DNA of 64,000 bases from Oegoconia quadripuncta (taxonomy: Eukaryota > Arthropoda > Insecta > Lepidoptera > Autostichidae): the NCBI GenBank assembly GCA_949316235.1, contig OX438751.1:21204801-21268800 (forward strand), in the 5' to 3' direction. Position numbers and translations under genes: made by a program. Within the stretch, counting starts at the first letter, position 1, and every line of letters starts with the position of its first letter. The notes under the pieces were generated by a model. It had not been told where the DNA came from and did no database searches. It worked only from the letters and a program-made list of their open reading frames with translations. Positions 4,365 through 63,535 of the stretch are shown here, in pieces.

Positions 4365-4609
4365 TATTTATGTAACATTCAATATGCAAACGCTTCCAGA
4401 TTTGATAGAATATTAAATTACAAAATATCAGAGAATAATCTATAAATTATTATTAACATACAATGTCAATTTACTAATTATCATTTCAAATAACCATATA
4501 AGTTTAAAATCCAAAAAACCCAATAGCAAATTTTTATTTTTATATTTATCAGGTTCCATGTTGGATTCCTTCCTTTAAATGTAACCGCTGCTGCGACACT
4601 TCACCGACT
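4365..4609. other. Unassigned AT-rich sequence
   Basis: Nothing recognised. Confidence 0.3.
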
Positions 4610-4735
4610 GTTCATCCCACAGCCTTACACGTCCCCATTGTTGGGGCACAGTATCCTCTCACTGGGAGAAGGTATTGGTATGGGCCATAATCCACCATGT
4701 ATGGATTGCAATCCATGCAATCCATGCATGTTTGA
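4610..4735 (-). mobile_element. RTE-type LINE 3' fragment
   Basis: The plus strand reads CACAGCCTTACACGTCCCCA, TGTTGGGGCACAG, CCTCTCACTGGGAG and GGGCCATAATCCACCA. This is the reverse of the 3' untranslated segment common in RTE elements, and a similar piece lies at 39.46 kb. The tandem ATCCATGCA words near 4715 are local slippage. Confidence 0.5.
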
Positions 4736-5059
4736 GAGAGACATGGATGCATTGTCATTACTTTCGAAAAAAGAACACGCGAAGTATCTAATTTACGGAC
4801 AGCGAAAAATAAATCCATTGCAGGAGCGTTTTTTGAATTTGGAACATTACAACGCTCCAGCAATGTTGTATGAAACGGCGTGCTGGGGTTATTATATACT
4901 CTTTGATTGGATTTCTTTTATCATTCTTGGCTTACCAAAATCTCTTCGCTTAGTACAAATTGCGTTCACGTGGCTGTATGCGTAAATGCGTTTGCCTTTC
5001 GGCACAGATGATAAATAGAAAATCGGCGGCAAAGCTGAAAATTCGTCTTGATTTGTTAT
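4736..5059. other. Unassigned sequence
   Basis: A 115-codon plus-strand frame begins inside the LINE fragment at 4638 and runs to 4985. It has no recognisable domain and its start lies in repeat DNA, so I do not call it a gene. Confidence 0.3.
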
Positions 5060-9119: not shown

Positions 9120-9597
9120 GCCTACTAAATTTTGGCCATCATATCAGCCGAAAGACGTCCACAGCTGCATGGCCGCCCAAAGACCTCCACAACGATCGGT
9201 CTTGCGCTGCCCGCATCCAGCGGCTTCCCCCGACCTTTACCAAATTGTCGGCCCCTCGGGTCTGTCCACGCTTCGTCTTCCGGCGCATGGTCGCCACTCG
9301 AGAACATTTCCGCCCCAACGGCCGTGCTACATGCCCCGCCCACTGCCACTTAAGTTTGGCAAGTCTTCGGGCAATATCGGTCACGTTGTTTCTCCTGCGG
9401 ATCTCCTCATTTCTTGTTCGATCCCGTAGGGAGACTCCGAGCATAGCTCTCTCCATTACCCTTTGGGTGACCTTGAGCCTTTTTATGAGGCCCATAGTGA
9501 GCGACCACGTTTCAGTTCCATATGTCATCACTGGCAACACACACTGGTCAAAAACTTTCGTTTTGAGATATTGCGGTATAAATTTCAAATAATACAA
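9120..9597 (-). pseudogene. RTE-type LINE reverse transcriptase, C-terminal fragment
   Basis: An open minus-strand frame of 152 codons ends near 9139. It encodes the C-terminal part of an RTE endonuclease-reverse transcriptase: FDQCVLPVMTYGTETWSLT, then VTQRVMERAMLGVSLRDR, then IRRRNNVTDIARRLAKLKWQ, WAGHVARP and GSRWMRAAQDRSLWRSLG. This order is diagnostic for the family. The endonuclease and the main RT palm are absent, since full proteins are several times longer. Between LGRKCSR and GADNLVKV the RPRTG/GRPPTRW segment is disturbed, and the last residues continue in the next frame (GRPCSCGRL). It is a dead, 5'-truncated copy. It is better preserved than the other RTE pieces here, so probably younger. 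Confidence 0.8.
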
Positions 9598-9639
9598 TAA
9601 TTTTACAATAATGTGACTGTTAATTATATCATCAGTGAA

Positions 9640-10010
9640 TGTTATTAATTATATCATTATTTTGCTCTGGTCCCAATTTATTTGGGCTCGGCGCAGTACT
9701 TCTTTTTCTTTCGTTACCTCATCATTCACGCCCTTTTCAATCATATCACCCTTCACACAATCCATCCACCTTTTCCGTGGTCTTCCTCTTCCTTTCCAAC
9801 CATCGACATCAATATTCAACATACTCTTAGTAACATGCATTTTATCCCTCCTCATTATTTGTTCATACCAAGCCAAACGGTTTCCTTTCAATTTTTCTGT
9901 TACGGATGTGACTTCTAAACTCACTCTTATATACTCATTCCTTATTTTATCCATCCTCGTCACTACACTTATCCGTCTCAACATTCTCATCTCTGCTGCA
10001 TGCAATGCAA
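9640..10010 (-). pseudogene. LINE reverse transcriptase, C-terminal fragment (second group)
   Basis: An open minus-strand frame of about 118 codons reads MHAAEMRMLRRISVVTRMDK, then IRNEYIRVSL, VTEKLKGNRLAWYEQIMRRD, and GRGRPRKRWMDCVKGDM. It ends in QINWDQSKIMI and the GCGCCGAGCCCAAATAAATT region. This is the familiar C-terminal end of a second insect endonuclease-reverse transcriptase group, whose motif order is MRMLRW, I-N-YIRG, W-GHV-RR and GRP-KRW-D-V-DM. There is no upstream domain. It lies in the same orientation as the RTE piece next to it but belongs to a different family, so the two are separate insertions. Confidence 0.75.
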
Positions 10011-10074
10011 TGCAAAATTCTAATTACGATTATCCATGTAATTAATATACCTATGTATTTGTTTTGCATGCATT
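10011..10074. other. Spacer
   Basis: AT-rich, nothing recognised. Confidence 0.3.
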
Positions 10075-10914: not shown

Positions 10915-11187
10915 GACGACCTGTTTGGTGTAGTGGTTAGCAACTCTGACCACTATATCAAAAGGTTGCGGGTTCGAATCCCGCAAGGGGCATATGTTTG
11001 TGTGATGAATACGGACATGTGTACCCGAGTCATGGACGTTTTCATTTATAATAAGCATTTATTTACAAAAAAAATATGTATTTAAGTAGTATATCAACCA
11101 TCTGGTATCCACAACACAAGCCTATAGATGCTTACTGTGGAACTAGATGGCGCTGTGTGTATGTCTAAGGATATTTATTTATTTATG
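10915..11187 (+). mobile_element. SINE-A, full length
   Basis: The copy runs GACCTGTTTGGTGTAGTGG, a short imperfect repeat, GGTTCGAATCCCGCAAGG, ATGAATACGGACATGTGTAC, ATCAACCATCTGGTATCCAC, GCGCTGTGTGTATGTCTAAGG and ATATTTATTTATTTA. It is one of the cleanest copies and useful as a local reference. Confidence 0.9.
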
Positions 11188-12654: not shown

Positions 12655-12900
12655 AATAACCTTACTTCATGTCATGACACGGAAAAGTCATCTTTGGCGC
12701 CTCTCGTAACGTGATATGTTACTGTAGAGATTGTTTGACGTCATACTGCGTTACGGCTGACGCTCACGACTATTGTTTAGCTTAGCTGTAGTGTAACATG
12801 AATCGTTTTGCAAGGAGAAACAAAGTGACGTATCTTTCATTTCAAGTGTGACGTCACGTAACGAATATAAAATAACGAGCGTTCGGTGTTAATCAGATTT
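12655..12900 (+). promoter_or_regulatory. Putative RNA polymerase II core promoter
   Basis: A TATA box (TATAAAAT, 12866-12873) is followed at typical spacing by an initiator-like TCAGA, whose A is at 12895, 29 bases after the first T of the TATA box. Upstream are two full CRE-like TGACGTCA sites (about 12738 and 12850) and several TGACG half sites. This is the standard arthropod TATA-plus-initiator arrangement. The LTR element is inserted 87 bp downstream of the proposed start. No downstream coding exon is visible, so the transcript, if any, is unknown. Confidence 0.4.
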
Positions 12901-12981
12901 TTTTTTAACTTTCGAAGAAGGCATTTTCTGTATTTGTTCCGTAGAATATTAAAAGATCGAACTGCGACAACCAAAGTACAG

Positions 12982-13125
12982 TGTAGTGTATGAATCACCT
13001 TTCCCCGAACATACGTAAGGCAGTCGATACCCATCTTTTAGTCAGTAAGTTAATTAGACAATAAACGACCATCGTCGAGACAACTTGTGTGTCTATTTGT
13101 GTTACTCCCAAGTCCCCACACCGCA
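12982..13125 (+). repeat. Left LTR (144 bp)
   Basis: Begins TGTAGTGTATGAATCACC and ends CCCCACACCGCA. It contains TTTTAGTCAGTAAG (initiator-like TCAGT) and GACAATAAACG (polyadenylation-like AATAAA). By eye it is identical to the right LTR. It is short for an LTR, in the size range of TRIM elements. Confidence 0.9.
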
Positions 13126-13143
13126 TGGCGATCCTGCCAGTGC
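13126..13143 (+). other. Primer-binding-like site
   Basis: TGGCGATCCTGCCAG begins at the base after the left LTR. A TGG start pairs with the CCA end of a tRNA, and the next base implies a G discriminator. The matching host tRNA was not identified. Confidence 0.6.
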
Positions 13144-14610
13144 TGCCTTTGGGCAGTGCTGTGCATAGGGGAACAGATTATAATAATGTTTGGACAATTT
13201 TTTTTTGTGAAAACAAAGAATTTTTTTTGGACTGTTATATAAATGTGAATTAAAAATGTGGCGTTGAATGTTATACGCGCGCGAACAATATTGATACGTC
13301 AGAATCTAGAAGAAGTATATTCAAAGTAAAGGCGGTGAATTTAAGTAAATATATAAAGATCAAGAAAAGACTTGTTATCAGAACAGGAAATAGAGAATAT
13401 GTACACCTAAAAGAATGTTGGTGACTGAGCGTACGGTGAGAAGATTAAATTTAAATGCTGGGCGCTGGGTGTTGAAGGTGTCGTGATGGAAGGTAATTGC
13501 TGGCCGCCGGGAGAAGTTGGTGACTGGAGGAAAGATCAGGATGGAGCAGGAGTCTAGGATAGGCAGGTAGTGACATCCGGTTGGTAACGAATGGAAAAAG
13601 TGAATAGTGAGTGAATAGGACAGACATTTTTTTATTTTTTCCCTTATTTCTTATAAAATAATTTCTCATTTAAAGAAAAAAAAAATACTTCGTGCATTAT
13701 AATATGCGAAAATAAAGTTTTTTTTTATTTACTAAATATAAGATGGTGTACCACATTAAAATTAATATAAATATTTGGATTAAAAATTATAAATTGATTA
13801 TTATTAGATTTTACGTAATGAGGAGTAGAAATTGATTGATTTATTTTTGGAAAATGTTTATGGTACATTATTAAAGTTATTTCTGTATTTTTGGTATGGA
13901 ACTGATTTTACATACAGTTCAATTTAATTAAAATTTTACTATGAAAATGTGACATAAATGATATTTAACGATGTTTTCACGAACAAATTTTATATATAAC
14001 TCACTGTAACTATAATATAGCTCTATGTACTCATAAAACCCATGTTAACAATAATAGTATTTTAGTTTGCAAATTCAAGGTACGTCGGTAGTCGAGTTAT
14101 CCAAAATGTTAAGGTAAGTGAGACAATAACATAAGTCCTATAAATGTATCATCATTTGTTCAGAAATAGATATTTCACAGTATTTTTTAATTCAATCAGT
14201 TTATAAATATTAATAATTACAAATATTATATTAAAGATATAATTTAAATTGTCTTATATTGCACAGAATTTACGTATTGCATGAAATATTTAATATGATT
14301 CCCTGTGTGCTATTTTTATTGTTAAATTATCCATTGTAGACTAACGAAATATAATTTATAAATTAATAAATATTTGGCAAATGGCAAATAAATTATTTGG
14401 CAATTGACGTAAGTAGTATCAAACTAAAAGTAAATTTCTACCAATTTTAAAGTAAAGATATTTTTATTCATTGGAAATATGTTTTAGAAATTTAAAGTTA
14501 ACGAATCCGCGACCGGTTCGAATCCCGGTAAGGGTAAATATTTGTGAGAAAAGCAAGAACATTTCAGTTATTTAAAATATTCACGCATTTTTTTTTATAT
14601 CAATAATATA
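13144..14610 (+). mobile_element. LTR element interior, left part
   Basis: No coding frame of note. The first 500 bp include G-rich sequence (13450-13570), the rest is very AT-rich. GGTTCGAATCCCGGTAAGGG at about 14516-14535 is a B-box-like SINE-head remnant without a convincing A box. Confidence 0.6.
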
Positions 14611-15651
14611 CAGGGCGTCCCACGGCTATGCCACATGGAGGAAAAGTACCTTGAATTTTGTAGATGGAACATTTTACTGAAAGAAGACATTATTTTAATT
14701 TAAAAAACAATTTAAACTGCATTCATACATTTTTAAATAAGTACATGGTTGAACCGGGAATCGAACCATTTATTTATAAAAAAAAATTACCATGTAGCTT
14801 TATCATACCGATCGAAAGGCTTCATCATAAGGATTATTTTTTGCTAAATAACATATTGTCAGAAATAAAAGGAAGACCATGAATTTTAACATTAGATGTT
14901 CAATTTTGTTCAGAAAAATGAAAAGCTGACATTGCCGTAAGGACATACAACTGACATTATCATTACTAATACTAATTACCCACTCGAGAAGTATGCATCA
15001 TTTCCCTATTATAATTTAAGTTCATGATAAAATGATAAAGAGATACGTAATTAGTAAGTAGGACTATCTCAATGAACATTTTCTTTCCTGGATCGGGACA
15101 AATGGACGAAAAAATGGCCGCCGAGATCCCCAGATCTAACCCCGTTAGATTTTTTTTATGGGGTTATGTAAAAAATTTACTTTACAAGAACCAGTGTCAA
15201 AGTGTCCACGAGCTACAAACTGAACTTCGACGTATTATTCTAAATATCCACCACAACATGATCAAAAAATCGACAGGGAGCGAAATAATCGAAAGAGTGC
15301 GACTTTGTATTGAACATGATGGGACTCATTTTGAGCATTTGATAAATTTGATTAATTTTGTATTAAAAATGTTAAAATTCATGGTCTTCCTTTTATTTCT
15401 GACACTATGTTATTTAGCAAAAAATTATCCTTATGATGAAGCCTTTCGATCGGTATGATAAAGTTACATGGTAATTTTTTTTTTATAAATAAAGGGTTCG
15501 ATTCCCGGTTCAACCATGTACTTATTTAAAAATCTATGAATGCAGTTTAAATTGTTTTTTAAATTAAAATAATGTCTTCTTTCAGTAAAATGTTCCATCT
15601 ACAAAATTCAAGGTACTTTCCCTCCATGTGGCATAGCCGTGGGACGCCCTG
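14611..15651 (+). mobile_element. Mariner/IS630-type inverted-repeat element, copy 1
   Basis: It begins CAGGGCGTCCCACGGC and ends in the reverse complement, flanked by TA on both sides (14609-14610, 15652-15653). The inverted arms are about 280 bp (14611-14890 and 15371-15651), unusually long for this superfamily. Each arm contains a T-arm-like GGTTCGATTCCCGG motif reading outward. The centre encodes a damaged C-terminus of a mariner-type transposase. It sits inside the LTR element, so it is the younger insertion. Confidence 0.9.
15072..15458 (+). pseudogene. Mariner-type transposase, C-terminal remnant
   Basis: An open frame of 128 codons contains FFLWGYVKNLLYKN (from residue 27), a helical SVHELQTELRRIILNI segment and the family's terminal GTHFEHLI. 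In intact relatives FFLWG is preceded by WPPRSPDLTPLD, whose last D is the third catalytic acid. Here that stretch is still legible in the DNA around 15115-15150 but in another frame, and the open frame reads IPRSNPVR instead. A one-base change in the T run at about 15150 explains the shift. A second slip lies in the A run near 15110. The DNA-binding domain and the first two catalytic acids are absent, so the gene is dead. Only about 120 of the usual 340 or so codons remain. Codons after about 15370 run into the inverted arm. Confidence 0.8.
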
Positions 15652-18535
15652 TATATGATAATGCTGAATGCTACGTAAGCTATCGTAAAATTTCATGTTA
15701 TGATTATTTTATTACCTTTAGGATATTTTCATAAATATTAACAGAAATATGAATTCTTACAGTAAATTTTAAATTTCAATAAGGAGTAGCAAGTATTCAT
15801 GGTTAATTAAACAAAAATTCCGAAACTTTTACATATTTAGATAAACATTACAAACGGAATTTACTAGGTTATCAGATGTCTATAGATCTATACAGGTACT
15901 TATTGAACGAACCAAATATTTGTGGGGATTAACACAAATACTTGAAAAGAAATTAAATATATTTATCAGTGTGAAATACTAATGTCATATTATTATGTCT
16001 CATTCATAACGAAATTAATTTATTTACAGAAAAATTCTATACCTAGTTCCCTTTTTGAGTCATGTACTTAGTGTCCATTACAGTTTCAAGGTAATTGTAT
16101 TTCCGTTGTATAAAATAATTGATTGCAGAAGATTCAAGAATGCAGTATCTAATGTTTTTAGTTACGTAGGTACTCATGTTTCATATAAACAAGCGCGTTG
16201 CAACTTGCAATGCCAGGTCACATAGCGACAACATATTGTTATTGTTACTGAGAATCATAATGCTGATGCACAATTTTGGTAGGTATCACTGTGGCAAGAA
16301 ATAAGATAATGGCATTACTGACACATACTTGCCTGTGATTTTATGATATTTACATACTTAGAAAGTATAGCTGCATACACAGATAGTTTAGTTATCCGAA
16401 TATTTTGTAGCAGCGAAGTTAAGAATGTATGAGGTAGAGTTCTTTTTCAGGAAATAGTATCTTGCATTTTATTTTTTTCTGGAAAGTTGTTTTGTTGGTT
16501 TATTATTTAATTTCGACGTGGTGATGAAGTATATAGATAAACGAGAAGTTTAGGTCAAGTAGATAGATTATGGTTAGGTATTTGTGAGATAGTATTAAAA
16601 ATCTTTTTGTTACCATCGAGTGCATTTAGGTACTTTTCTCAACGGTAAGATAAGATTGAATCGCATAAGCGTGGGAAAAGATTTATGTAGAGTTGATGAT
16701 TTATTGTGATTTGAATGATAGTGTTTTATAGATAGGTCAGGTTTATGTCAAAGGTTAGTTCAAAGTTGTTGGGAATCATTTGGTACATGAGATTTTAAGA
16801 AACATAGGATTGATCACCCATATGTGATGTAAAATTCTTGTAGACCAAAGTATTCAATTTGTATGTGTATGTAAATTATGGTATTAGAATGAAGGGCAAT
16901 TGAGTATTAGGTACACAAATAAAGGTACTTTGAGGGTCAGGTCCTTCTAATTCGATCATGGTGTAAACGAGATTTCTCTGTGAGAATTGTTGGAGTCCTA
17001 TAGTGACTTAAATTAAGGCCCCAAATAAATGAATACAGGGTATGCGCATAACCCATACTAGGTACAAAGATGCCTATGTATTTATGAATAAAAATAATAA
17101 TGAAGAGTCGACTCAAGTTATTGAAATGATATGTACCTATAAATATTTAAGATGGCTGGCCAGCCCAAATGATGAAATGAAATAAGGTGTACCTATGAAT
17201 TATGTAAGTTGTTGTGGTAAATAATATTGAAAATGAGAAAGGTTAAGGTAGGAAATGTCATTAATGAAAAATAAGAGAATATGAAAATAAATAATGTCGT
17301 AGAATGAATTTATTTTTATTGTAATCATGCAAGTACAATAATAAATTACAAAGAAATTAGGAGGAATAGGAGATAGGTAGAGGTCATTTAAAATTTTATG
17401 CGTCTCATAAATAGAGAATAATTATTCACAATAAATTAATAATTTCATATTGTTAACATGGCGTTTTGACTTTTAAATGTAATACGAAATAAGTTTTGAG
17501 TACATAAATTGTATGAATATAGAATTAAATATATTTCTTTTAATGTGAGAATTTAAAATGTGTCATTTTGGAATGTATCTACATATTTAAAAATAATTGT
17601 GGTGCACCTACCTATGTAGCTTAAGTTTTATTTTATTTTTCAATATATAACTACATACATATGTTATACAAATTGTATTGCTCTCTTGTATACTACTTCA
17701 TTGTCGTGTTAAATTTTATATAGAATTTGTATTTTCTTTTTACTTTAGTAACGTTAATAGTTTTTCTTGGGATAAGGTATACTTTTAAAATCATTAATTG
17801 TAATTGAGTATACTCTAGTTACAAAACATTGTTTTTAAATTCAAATTTTTAATGTCGTGTGCTAATTTTTAAACATGTTAAATCATGAATGTTATAGGAT
17901 AAAATAAATATGATATTAGGTATTTGTAATAGAAAAACTTTCTCTAGTAATTTTGTTGTCATAAATAACACCAAACATAACAGTTCAAGCAATTTGTATA
18001 ATTTAAAATTTAAGTTTTTAGTGTTTTAAGTATATGTAGTGTTATTGTTTTATGGTTCAATTTTAATTTCCTTTTGGATTCTTTTTGATGTTCTTAGTAC
18101 TGCTTTTAGTGTGCATTATTAAAGCTAGAGTATATCTGTTACTAAAACTATACTGAATATTATAAAAATTATATTTCACAAAATTGTTAAAACAAAAATA
18201 ATTTTGATGTATTTTCTTATCCAGTTAAAATCAATTGAGTATTTAAAATGAGTTATATGGACAAACAATTTGTATCTTCTCTGTAGTTTTTTTTATATTG
18301 TAAAATTTAATTTTATTGGTGTTGCTCTTTTACTATTTTGTTAAAATTTAAGTAGGTAAATAAGTATGAAATTTTATTAACAGCAAGAAAAATTTTAAAT
18401 TGAAACTAAATGATTTTATTGTATAATATCTGAAATTTCTCATTTGCCATGTTTTAACATTGTAAAAATTAAACTGATTTTTTTTTTTCTGAATTTTTCA
18501 AAAACAGAAAATAATTTTGGCATATATTTTCTTTT
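15652..18535 (+). mobile_element. LTR element interior, right part
   Basis: 2.9 kb with no open frame of 60 codons on either strand. Words such as TAGGTAC and TATTTGT recur. Between 16561 and 16800 I counted 58 G and 17 C on the plus strand. No SINE or LINE was recognised, which agrees with one young insertion. Confidence 0.7.
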
Positions 18536-18554
18536 AAAAAGAAAAGGGGGAAGG
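18536..18554 (+). other. Polypurine tract
   Basis: Nineteen consecutive purines (five A, then GAAAAGGGGGAAGG) end exactly at the right LTR. This is the usual plus-strand primer position of LTR retrotransposons. Confidence 0.88.
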
Positions 18555-18698
18555 TGTAGTGTATGAATCACCTTTCCCCGAACATACGTAAGGCAGTCGA
18601 TACCCATCTTTTAGTCAGTAAGTTAATTAGACAATAAACGACCATCGTCGAGACAACTTGTGTGTCTATTTGTGTTACTCCCAAGTCCCCACACCGCA
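18555..18698 (+). repeat. Right LTR (144 bp)
   Basis: Identical to the left LTR. The flank begins ACAG, matching the four bases before the left LTR. Confidence 0.9.
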
Positions 18699-18714
18699 AC
18701 AGTACGAAGTTAGA

Positions 18715-19140
18715 TTATCAATCAATCAATCAAATACTCTTTATTGCACAATTAACAAAAGCTAAATGAAGAATACAGCGTACATCATTAATCGCATAAA
18801 AAGGCGGCCTTATCGCTAACAGCGATCTCTTCCGGGCATACCTTAGGGTAAAGATACAAGCTACCAGTAGGTGAGGTTTGCACTAATAGTAGCAATACGG
18901 GTGTATTTTATAGTTGGTAATTATTATATAACGTAAAGATAAAAATACATAAACTAAGCCTACAAACTATAACTAGATAATTTAACTGCACTTAAACATT
19001 AATATATTATTGACTACATAACACACATAAATTTATATATATAAATATATAATATTAAATATATAAAAAATTAAATAAATAAAATACATGCCGTTTGTTT
19101 GCTCAGAAATAACTTAGAAATCATATTGACAACCACGGAG
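18715..19140 (-). mobile_element. CR1-like LINE 3' end
   Basis: On the minus strand it shows GCCCGGAAGAGATCGCTGTT, AGCGATAAGGCCGCC, then TAATTGTGCAATAAAGAG and a TTTGATTGATTGATTGAT tail. The more distant part (to about 19140) is the T-rich 3' UTR. No reverse transcriptase codons were recognised. Confidence 0.65.
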
Positions 19141-19512
19141 AAGATAAGAGGACGTTCAATTAATTTTTTTTTTTATTATTGAAGGAAGTGCGCTTTGACT
19201 TGTGTTTTGAAGACGTTTATTGATGGATGATTATGTAACTAGTCATGCCATAAATATAAAGTTGCAAATAAAAAAGTTCTAATTACAACATTTTCCTAAT
19301 TTAAAGGAACGCCTTTATTTTGTAGAAAAACTTCTATCTGATTCCCGTCATTTCATATATTATTTTATGTATACGTTAAACAAAAGTGAGCTAGTGATTG
19401 CTTTGCATAAAGTGAGTATGGAAACATAAGCCATTTTGACACCCTTCAAATGCTAGACTTCAGCCTCTATCGCACTATTGAGAGGTAGATAAACTAACAC
19501 TTCATTTATTTG
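19141..19512. other. Unassigned sequence
   Basis: Nothing recognised. Confidence 0.3.
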
Positions 19513-19514
19513 GT

Positions 19515-19785
19515 GACCTGTTTGGTGTAGTGGTTAGAAACTCTGCTGCTATATCAAAAGGTCGCGGGTTCGAATCCCGCTAGGGGCATATGTTTGTATG
19601 ATGAATAAAGACATGTGTTCCCGAGTTATGGATGTTTTTCATTTATATATGTATTTATTTACAAAAAACAAATGTACTTGTGTAGTATATCAACCATCTG
19701 GTATATATAATATAAGCCTAGTTGCTTAGTGTGGAACTAGATGGCGCTGTGTGTATGTGCAAAGATATTTATTTATTTTTTTATC
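19515..19785 (+). mobile_element. SINE-A, full length
   Basis: Head GACCTGTTTGGTGTAGTGG, GGTTCGAATCCCGCTAGG, GCGCTGTGTGTATGTGCAAAG and an ATATTTATTTATTTTTTT tail. In the GTGCAAAG variant it resembles the copies at 2.7 and 48.5 kb, and others read GTCTAAGG or GTCCAAGG. Confidence 0.88.
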
Positions 19786-48150: not shown

Positions 48151-48518
48151 ATATGCTTTTTAATAACATCCCATACATATGCTCATTCCTGTTTCATAAA
48201 ATGCATTTGAAAAATTAAGGAATTCCACAAATAGTTGTTACCAGTGTGGGTGTATACAATGAACCCTCGATGTAAAGGTTGTTTTCGTGTAACTAACTTT
48301 TAATGCGCAACATTCTTGTACTCACAAAGACAAGTCAAAACTCGAAAGGTTCCATCATCTGGAGGAGTTAACAGCTGATGCACATAACACAAGTATTTTT
48401 AATGCTCAGCATGGCATCTGGGAACATGTTTCAGAAATTAGGACTGAATACTACAGAATTAACTTCTGTAGGTATACTGTTACCTGTGGTTGAACTAAAT
48501 TATTCTATTTTGGTTTGG
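48151..48518. other. Unassigned sequence
   Basis: Nothing recognised. Confidence 0.3.
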
Positions 48519-48519
48519 T

Positions 48520-48795
48520 GACGACCTGTTTGGTGTAGTAGTTAGAAACTCTTACCACTATACCAAATGGTCGCGTGTTCGAATCCCGCTAGGAGCATAT
48601 GTTTGTATGATGAATACAGACATGTGTTCCCGAGTTATGGATGTTTGTCATTTATACATGTATTTATTTACAAAAAAGAAAATGTATTTGTGTAGTTTAT
48701 TAACCATCTGGTAAGCATAACACAAGCCTAGATGCTTACTGTGGACCTAGATGGCGCTGTGTGTTTGTGCAAAGACATTTATTATTATTATTGTT
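48520..48795 (+). mobile_element. SINE-A, full length
   Basis: Head with TAGTAGTTAG, B box GTGTTCGAATCCCGC, GCGCTGTGTGTTTGTGCAAAG and a (TTA)n tail. Confidence 0.88.
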
Positions 48796-62440: not shown

Positions 62441-62492
62441 CATAATAACTTTCCACTACGAACCATAGCCGAATTCATACATTCATATTATA

Positions 62493-63317
62493 CAGGGCGT
62501 CCCAAAGTTATGGGACATGAAGGGGAAGTACCTTAAATATTGTAGATAGTGAATTTTGCTCAAAGAAGACTTTATGTTATTTTTAAAAGTTAGTAATTCT
62601 GCATTCATAGATTTTCTAAAAATTACTTGCTTCGGCTGGGAATCGAACCGACTTAAATGTGAAAAAAAAAACACCCTACTTTTATGATGCCAATCGAAAG
62701 AATAGCTAAAAAATAATAACTCTGCCTAAGTAACATAGTATTTTAAAAGAAAGGAACAACATAAAATGATTGAGTCAAATTTCAAGAAAGTTATTTATTG
62801 CCGACGACGTTCGAAAAGTAGCGATATTATCATTCCAAAGATAACATTGATTATTCGTAAATAAGTACCCACTTCATAAAATAGGTACTAACATAGTTTT
62901 CCTTATTATAAGTGCACGTGTAGATGAAATGATAACAAGAGGGATCACATTTTGAGCATTTAATTAATTAATTTACAAAAAAATACCTACTTAATTGACT
63001 ACGGCAGTTTCATGTATGTTTTTTATTTGATTAAAATGATTAATTTCACGTTGTTCCTTTCTTTTAAAATACTATGTTACTTAGGCAGAGTTATTATTTT
63101 TTAGCTATTCTTTCGATTGGCATCATAAAAGTAGGGTGTTTTTTTTTTCACATTTGAGTCGGTTCGATTCCCAGCCGAAGCAAATAATTTTTAGAAAATC
63201 TATGAATGCAGAATTACTAACTTTTAAAAATAACATAAAGTCTTCTTTGAGCAAAATTCACTATCTACGATATTTAAGGTACTTCCCCTTCATGTCCCAT
63301 AACTTTGGGACGCCCTG
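62493..63317. mobile_element. Mariner/IS630-type inverted-repeat element, copy 2
   Basis: Starts CAGGGCGTCCCAAAGTTATG and ends in the reverse complement, with TA on both sides (62491-62492, 63318-63319). The arms are about 268 bp (62493-62760, 63050-63317) and nearly identical, so identical short frames appear in both. The centre keeps only a scrap of the transposase end (GATCACATTTTGAGCATTTA at about 62943, compare 15327). Each arm carries the outward GGTTCGATTCCCAG motif. It is related to, but clearly diverged from, copy 1. Confidence 0.88.
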
Positions 63318-63535
63318 TATAAAGTAAGATATTCTGAAGCCACCTTTAGTATGGAAGTCCAACAATTTTGGGCTTCCTACTGATATGGTTCATAGTGGTA
63401 AGTTGTTCGTAATCAGGAGTGGAGTCACCAGCGGAAAATTGTTGGATTTCAATAGTATAAGTGGTTTCAGAATGGTTTACTTTGTCGATAATCGAAATTT
63501 TTCTAATCGAATTCGACTACGGTTCCTTGGGAAAA
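63318..63535. other. Interior of outer CAGGGTG element
   Basis: Contains a diverged direct repeat of the arm region (GTTCGTAATCAGGAGTGGAG, TCACCAGCGG at 63407 compared with TTCGTAATCAAAGATTGGCG, TCACCAG at 63540). No coding sequence. Confidence 0.45.

What the first reader, a model, noticed from the sequence alone, without database searches (positions are those of the whole stretch)
12982..18698. Recently inserted non-coding LTR retrotransposon with 144-bp LTRs
Seen: two identical 144-bp TG...CA repeats, ACAG flanks on both sides, a TGG-starting primer-binding-like site, a 19-base polypurine tract, and no retroviral-type genes. Known: identical LTRs mean recent integration; short LTRs occur in TRIMs and long non-coding interiors in LARDs. 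The combination of tiny LTRs and a 4.4-kb non-coding interior is unusual. Inferred: its proteins come from an unseen gypsy- or BEL-type partner.
Basis: partly seen in the sequence, partly recalled or inferred. Interest (0 to 1): 0.75.

Follow-up and report, generated by a model that had tools for sequence, protein, structure and literature searches.

The report
Gene-less BEL/Pao-derived insect retrotransposon
A recently inserted jumping element in what looks like a moth or butterfly genome carries no genes of its own; it has at least two dozen sister copies and looks like a stripped version of a protein-coding BEL/Pao element found in the same genome, so it is a clear new example of a known kind of genetic hitchhiker.

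Summary
In detail: identical 144-bp TG...CA LTRs (12982-13125, 18555-18698), ACAG duplications, a tRNA-type primer site, a 19-base purine tract, no retroviral coding found. Of 18 LTR-paired copies read, 15 have perfect 4-bp duplications; 15 have identical LTRs and 3 differ at one base. The 14 full-length copies compared lack the 1,041-bp DNA transposon nested here, so the native element is about 4.67 kb. A coding relative was found (C7:21098843-21109167, 10.3 kb): a BEL/Pao element with 144/146-bp LTRs, 4-bp duplication, and nearly the same primer site, adjoining hairpin and purine tract. The window element is collinear with its long leader and tail but lacks gag-pol. So it is a non-autonomous BEL/Pao derivative, probably mobilised in trans (not shown). 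Short LTRs around a long non-coding interior are already described in Culex: a new member of a known kind. Unusual points: the hairpin kept beside the primer site, strong C depletion, mosaic copies.

The parts
12978..12981 (.). target-site duplication ACAG, left
12982..13125 (+). 5' LTR, 144 bp, TG...CA; holds AATAAA and a TCAGT initiator-like motif (motif meaning recalled)
   Evidence: 40 scored matches in the genome
13126..13140 (+). primer-binding site TGGCGATCCTGCCAG; 14 of 18 copies have TGGCGACCCTGCCAG, 4 of 18 this form
   Evidence: tRNA-Arg as the primer is recalled, not tested
13135..13165 (+). hairpin overlapping the end of the primer site; its inner stem (TGCTGCC/GGCAGTGC) is present in 17 of 18 family copies, in sister family L057 and in the coding relative, with different loops
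13216..13390 (+). fast-changing part of the leader (65-68% mean identity among 13 aligned copies)
13463..13527 (+). segment matching the 5' leader of the BEL/Pao relative (73%)
   Evidence: E 2e-6
14037..14382 (+). segment matching the 5' leader of the BEL/Pao relative (58%, weak)
   Evidence: E 4e-5
14611..15651 (.). nested DNA transposon with about 290-bp inverted ends and TA duplication (Tc1/mariner-like by these signs, inferred); private to this copy, not part of the native element
16585..17241 (+). non-coding core shared with the 3' tail of the BEL/Pao relative (69%) and, in part, with sister family L057
   Evidence: E 1e-79
18536..18554 (+). polypurine tract AAAAAGAAAAGGGGGAAGG; last 12 bases identical in the BEL/Pao relative
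18555..18698 (+). 3' LTR, identical to the 5' LTR
18699..18702 (.). target-site duplication ACAG, right

Best explanation
It is a recently inserted copy of a non-autonomous LTR retrotransposon family that descends from a BEL/Pao element by loss of the gag-pol frame, keeping LTRs, primer site, adjoining hairpin, long leader, long 3' tail and purine tract. Most likely cycle: transcription from the 5' LTR; packaging of the non-coding RNA into particles made by a BEL/Pao element of the kind found at C7:21098843-21109167; reverse transcription from a tRNA on the primer site, plus-strand start at the purine tract; integration with a 4-bp duplication. Shown: anatomy, copy family, duplications, LTR identity, coding relative, collinearity, mosaic copies. 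Inferred: transcription, movement in trans, a packaging role of leader and hairpin, the identity of the tRNA.
For: LTR matched in 40 scored places of 199 candidates; interior stretch in 25 copies (this one included) at 92-100% over at least 992 of 1,001 bases. 15 of 18 LTR-paired copies have perfect 4-bp duplications, 14 different ones; LTR pairs identical in 15 of 18, one difference in 3. Longest frames lie near shuffle level in most of 17 interiors (exceptions under evidence against). BEL/Pao relative: DUF1759, DUF1758, RVT_1, Peptidase_A17, Integrase_H2C2, DUF5641 in five separately searched pieces; LTRs 144/146 bp differing only in a C run, CTTC duplication, primer site two bases from this copy's and one from the commonest form, same inner hairpin stem, last 12 bases of the purine tract identical. 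Collinear matches to its leader (E 4e-8, 2e-6, 4e-5) and tail (E 1e-79), none to its frame at E 1e-3. C-poor skew is in the leader and tail of the relative (0.12-0.18) but not in its frame (0.02-0.03). Copies are mosaics of one another.
Against: The relative is not the immediate parent: the core is 69-73% alike and LTR middles do not align. The third leader match is weak (58%, E 4e-5; a reversed-sequence control gave one hit at 3.5e-4). No transcript, particle or transposition was seen. 3 of 18 copies lack duplications (L037, L038, L040). One copy (L043) lacks the hairpin yet has a duplication and identical LTRs. Besides this copy's nested-transposon frame (135 aa), three frames exceed all 30 shuffles of their interiors: 126 aa (L037) and 128 aa (L043) antisense, 95 aa sense (L046, shuffle maximum 93); they were not searched in Pfam.
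Confidence: 0.88

Rival explanations
1. It is a gag-pol-less element moved by an unrelated LTR element (for example gypsy), the BEL/Pao likeness being only shared ancestry.
For: The BEL/Pao relative is only 69-73% alike in the core and its LTR middle does not align. Animal TRIMs thought to be moved by gypsy also make 4-bp duplications (PMC10886601).
Against: LTR ends, purine tract, primer site and hairpin, the parts that the enzymes read, match the BEL/Pao element, which also has a 4-bp duplication.
Confidence: 0.08
2. It is a formerly coding element whose genes decayed in place, with LTRs made identical by gene conversion.
For: The nested transposon shows that insertions accumulate; mosaic copies could also arise by gene conversion.
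Against: Copies at different sites share the same non-coding interior (11 of 16 others 4.28-4.46 kb long; 95-100% pairwise in the 3' part of 13 aligned copies), most with their own duplication; decay in place would give different debris at each site.
Confidence: 0.02
3. Captured host non-coding sequence between LTRs.
For: The interior resembles no protein family tested and is strongly strand-biased.
Against: Leader and core match the leader and tail of a BEL/Pao element, which share the composition bias.
Confidence: 0.02

Closest known systems
cqUNK non-autonomous LTR retrotransposons of Culex quinquefasciatus (PMC3286476; passages incl. the abstract, the section on non-autonomous elements with Table 2, and the Discussion read)
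   Same: No coding sequence, LTRs 125-931 bp (mostly under 400), total 1.6-14.6 kb, LTR pairs above 98% alike, sharp primer site (tRNA-Arg in 11 of 38 by my count), purine tract; several of 4-5.5 kb with 176-197-bp LTRs
   Different: All Culex ones carry tandem repeats, most duplications given are 5 bp, and no master copy was found; here no sizeable tandem repeats, 4-bp duplications, and a coding BEL/Pao relative in hand. The paper mentions repeat-free Anopheles gambiae elements as unpublished.
LARD (large retrotransposon derivatives; definitions seen in passages of PMC3532108 and PMC6696364; the original paper is not held)
   Same: Long non-coding interior with primer site and purine tract
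   Different: Typical LARD LTRs are about 4.4 kb; here 144 bp. Under the loose definition (non-coding, over 4 kb) it fits
TRIM, including ant PbTRIM (PMC3532108, passages) and Helenus/Ajax (PMC10886601, abstract, section 3.6 and passages)
   Same: LTRs of about 100-350 bp, non-coding, 4-bp duplications in insects
   Different: TRIMs are under about 1 kb; no tRNA or 5S sequence found in these LTRs
BEL/Pao LTR retrotransposons
   Same: Cis sequences of the coding copy at C7:21098843-21109167
   Different: No gag-pol found

Membership tests
Non-autonomous LTR retrotransposon (general) | paired LTRs, target duplication, primer site, purine tract | tested here: met
Non-autonomous LTR retrotransposon (general) | dispersed family of copies | tested here: met
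Non-autonomous LTR retrotransposon (general) | no gag/pol | tested here: met
   30 frame pieces of this copy against Pfam; frame lengths in 17 interiors
Non-autonomous LTR retrotransposon (general) | mobilised in trans | not testable with these tools
   only a candidate partner type was found
LARD, strict | LTRs of several kb | tested here: not met
   144 bp
LARD, loose | non-coding element longer than 4 kb | tested here: met
   13 of 17 other paired copies read are 4.55-4.82 kb
TRIM | total length below about 1 kb | tested here: not met
   about 4.67 kb without the nested transposon; shortest paired copy read 1,838 bp
Helenus/Ajax (TRIMp3) | tRNA or 5S sequence in the LTR | tested here: not met
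   no Rfam match at E up to 1 in 12900-18800
BEL/Pao derivative | cis sequences and collinear untranslated parts shared with a BEL/Pao coding element | tested here: met
BEL/Pao (as autonomous member) | gag-pol with Pao-type domains | tested here: not met
tRNA-Arg primed elements | primer site complementary to a host tRNA-Arg | not tested
   the genome search for the primer-site pattern did not complete (17 tries); no tRNA gene was looked up

The most novel reading that the evidence does not exclude
The 4.4-kb interior is not idle filler but a long, C-poor RNA kept because it competes well for BEL/Pao particles: the hairpin at the primer site and the 0.66-kb core, both shared with sister family L057 and with the coding element, would be BEL/Pao packaging or dimerisation signals, perhaps the first located in an animal BEL/Pao system (that none are known is recalled, not searched).
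Probability: 0.25. Interest if true: 0.6.

Novelty: new member of a known kind. Interest (0 to 1): 0.42.

Why it matters
The gene-less LTR families that I read about in insects (Culex, ant) were reported without a partner (PMC3286476, PMC3532108). Here a gene-less family, a sister gene-less family and a coding BEL/Pao relative lie in one genome and share LTR ends, primer site, hairpin and a non-coding core while the rest has diverged. That comparison points to the sequences that BEL/Pao replication may need in cis, a question little studied for this superfamily (recalled). It also shows that 4-5-kb non-coding elements with very short LTRs are real and deserve a class in insect annotation.

Tried and rejected
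Scans of viral contigs with five LTR, junction, primer-site and leader patterns: 0 hits for three, 3 hits each for two. In the 6 hit loci (L001-L006; GC 0.41-0.71) the likeness never exceeded 29 bases; L001, the longest, was read and looks like a phage with no direct-repeat pair, so rejected as chance; the other five were not read further. Genome contigs with an LTR 20-mer: 0 hits. Literature search for the primer-site letters: 15 papers listed, titles unrelated to retroelements, none opened. A 152-aa frame at 4527-4985 had no relative at E 0.001.

RNA folding along the element: 39 windows, both strands; lowest z -2.54 over the primer-site hairpin and -2.75/-3.11 at the purine tract and LTR start; with 78 tests these alone are not significant. 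The hairpin is argued from its retention across diverged copies; its stem shows no compensatory changes, so covariation gives no support.

Early idea that the nested transposon predates the LTR insertion (its arms differ at 7 of 291 positions while the LTRs do not; P of 0 of 144 = 0.03, Fisher 0.10) was overturned: 14 other full-length copies run across its site with at most about 10 unaligned bases, so it is private to this copy, and its arms probably already differed when it landed.

Conserved interior as proof of selection: rejected as too strong; copies are young, so high identity is expected without selection.
Full report
OBSERVATION. The window holds two identical 144-bp repeats with TG...CA ends at 12982-13125 and 18555-18698, flanked outside by ACAG on both sides, with TGGCGATCCTGCCAG directly after the first and a 19-base purine tract directly before the second. 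Each sign is unlikely alone (4-base match 0.0056; TGG 0.01; 3 purine runs of that length on both strands of 64 kb, this one included) and together they leave little doubt about an LTR element. The LTR holds AATAAA and a TCAGT initiator-like motif (reading recalled).

NO GENES. In the two interior parts outside the nested transposon there are 62 stop-to-stop frames of 30 aa or more; the longest per part and strand are reached by 28 to 106 of 200 shuffles. 30 frame pieces (26 from the interior proper, one of which starts inside the LTR; 4 from the nested transposon) were scanned against Pfam at E up to 1: no gag, protease, RT or integrase; the 5 weak matches are all below their families' cut-offs. 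Frames under 38 aa, and some of 38-45 aa, were not scanned. Rfam has nothing in 12900-18800 at E up to 1.

HOST. A LINE fragment at 9142-9648 has 362 relatives at E 0.001; the named ones among the 120 listed are nearly all moths and butterflies, with one beetle and one bacterial label as exceptions. The window is C10:21204801-21268800 of a 622.6-Mb assembly in 45 contigs. The species is not known to me.

FAMILY. The LTR had 40 scored matches out of 199 first-look candidates, so counts are lower bounds. The interior stretch 16300-17300 had 46 matching rows from 40 scored of 109 candidates; 25, this copy included, are at 92-100% over at least 992 of 1,001 bases, the others shorter or more distant. 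I read 18 LTR-paired copies: the window's, L037-L052 and L060. They were chosen for LTR or interior likeness to the window copy, which may favour young ones. LTR pairs are identical in 15 of 18 and differ at one base in L040, L041 and L052: 3 differences in roughly 2,600 positions (my sum). The window copy alone allows up to 2.1%. Perfect 4-bp duplications flank 15 of 18; L037, L038 and L040 have none, as could follow recombination or rearrangement. Of the loci with an unpaired LTR match I fetched four (L053-L056): L056 is a solo LTR with an ATTG duplication; L054 is followed by a primer site and L055 preceded by a purine tract, so both look like ends of incomplete copies; L053 has an inverted partial LTR and a 3' LTR, flanked by TTCC on both sides, a structure that would fit self-integration.

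NESTED TRANSPOSON. 14611-15651 has about 290-bp inverted ends (97%) and a TA duplication; its longest frame has one relative in the protein collection, without a name, and no Pfam match above cut-off. Naming it Tc1/mariner-like is inference from the TA site. 14 other full-length copies run from interior position 1485 on to 2527-2541 with at most about 10 unaligned bases, so the insertion is private to this copy; L042 and L043 lack the region. Without it the element is about 4.67 kb; 13 of the 17 other paired copies are 4.55-4.82 kb, the rest 5.45, 5.04, 1.95 and 1.84 kb.

INTERIOR. Longest frames in 17 interiors sit near shuffle level; besides the window's nested-transposon frame three exceed all 30 shuffles (L037 and L043 antisense, L046 sense). 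In an alignment of 13 of the 17 interiors, positions 91-265 are 65-68% alike and the rest downstream 86-99% per 100 columns. In six aligned copies the last 26 bases of the LTR and the first 36 of the interior (primer site and inner hairpin) vary at two positions only, while the next 200 vary freely; the hairpin is present in 17 of 18 copies. C is depleted: C 0.102, G 0.169 against 0.176 and 0.176 outside the element; GC skew 0.249, beyond the range -0.124 to 0.081 of 992 overlapping equal-length stretches of the window outside it, and 0.19-0.26 in all 17 interiors.

MOSAICS. Nearest relatives change along the element: the window copy is closest to L052 in the 5' part (100 of 100 column resamplings) and to L047 in the 3' part (90 of 100; L048 is almost the same as L047); L038 and L044 switch likewise. 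This is what reverse transcription of two co-packaged RNAs would give; gene conversion between loci is not excluded.

PARTNER. One of the distant interior matches, C7:21107462, lies behind a long frame. Searched in separate pieces, that frame has DUF1759, DUF1758, RVT_1, Peptidase_A17 (Pao retrotransposon peptidase), Integrase_H2C2 and DUF5641, a BEL/Pao set. Its LTRs are 144 and 146 bp, identical apart from a C run; it has CTTC on both sides, primer site TGGCGACTCTGCCAG, hairpin TGCTGCC-CTTG-GGCAGTGC, and purine tract GAAAGGGGGAAGG. By coordinates it spans 21098843-21109167, with about 2.8 kb between 5' LTR and frame and 2 kb behind the frame. A second place, C2:20290058 (L063), has the same LTR type (98.6%) and core (71%); its upstream part was not read.

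COLLINEARITY. The window interior matches this element's leader at three places in order (E 4e-8, 2e-6, 4e-5) and its tail over 657 bases (69%, E 1e-79), and its frame nowhere at E 1e-3; a reversed-sequence control gave one hit, at 3.5e-4, so the third leader match is weak by itself, and a further tail match at 6e-4 was dropped. The C-poor bias is in that element's leader and tail but not in its frame. The simplest history is loss of gag-pol from a BEL/Pao element with long untranslated parts, somewhere within what is now 14382-16585.

SISTER. L057 (C3) is another gene-less element: 143-bp identical LTRs of different sequence, GCTC duplication, primer site TGGCGACCCTGCCAG, the same inner hairpin stem with a different loop, 4,295 bp, longest sense frame 79 aa. 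So across three element types the primer site changes by one or two bases, the inner stem not at all, and the core stays alignable at 65-73%, while most other parts align weakly or not.

COMPARISON. The nearest described things that I found are the cqUNK elements of Culex (PMC3286476): gene-less, mostly short LTRs, 1.6-14.6 kb, no master found. LARDs proper have about 4.4-kb LTRs and TRIMs are under 1 kb (PMC3532108; loose LARD definition PMC6696364). Honey bee and bumblebee genome papers list LARD-class repeats in bulk (PMC4028053, PMC4414376, passages). In passages of two butterfly TE papers (PMC4016481, PMC8848866) I saw no gene-less LTR family; that is not a full reading. I did not find a described gene-less BEL/Pao family with its coding relative in nine answered paper searches, of which only the listings and the papers named here were seen.

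VERDICT. Real, recent, multi-copy, gene-less BEL/Pao derivative; a good new member of a known kind. Trans-mobilisation, primer tRNA and packaging role remain inference.

Noticed in passing
14611-15651 and 62488-63322: Two DNA transposons with long inverted ends, 70-75% alike in these ends; the arms of each are 97-98% alike.
   Followed up: partly
19504-19700 and 14 further places in the window, such as 10918-11104 and 48514-48710: An abundant tRNA-derived SINE-like repeat; two copies score as tRNA in Rfam just above the cut-off.
   Followed up: no
9142-10023, minus strand: End part of a LINE-type endonuclease-reverse transcriptase frame; 9142-9648 is lepidopteran by its relatives.
   Followed up: partly
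L057, C3:36501200-36511100: A sister gene-less LTR family with other LTR sequence but the same primer site and inner hairpin stem.
   Followed up: partly
L053, C7:2674800-2684700: Inverted partial LTR and 3' LTR of this family flanked by TTCC on both sides, as self-integration might leave.
   Followed up: no
L042 and L043: Short copies (1,947 and 1,838 bp) with duplications and identical LTRs; L043 jumps from the primer site straight into the 3' part.
   Followed up: no
18546-18579: Purine tract and LTR start form an 11-base inverted repeat (GGGGGAAGGTG / CACCTTTCCCC, one mismatch); z about -3 but not beyond multiple testing.
   Followed up: no
L059, C17:4940800-4950700: Core-like segment (70%) lying outside a 214-bp direct-repeat pair; relation unresolved.
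   Followed up: no
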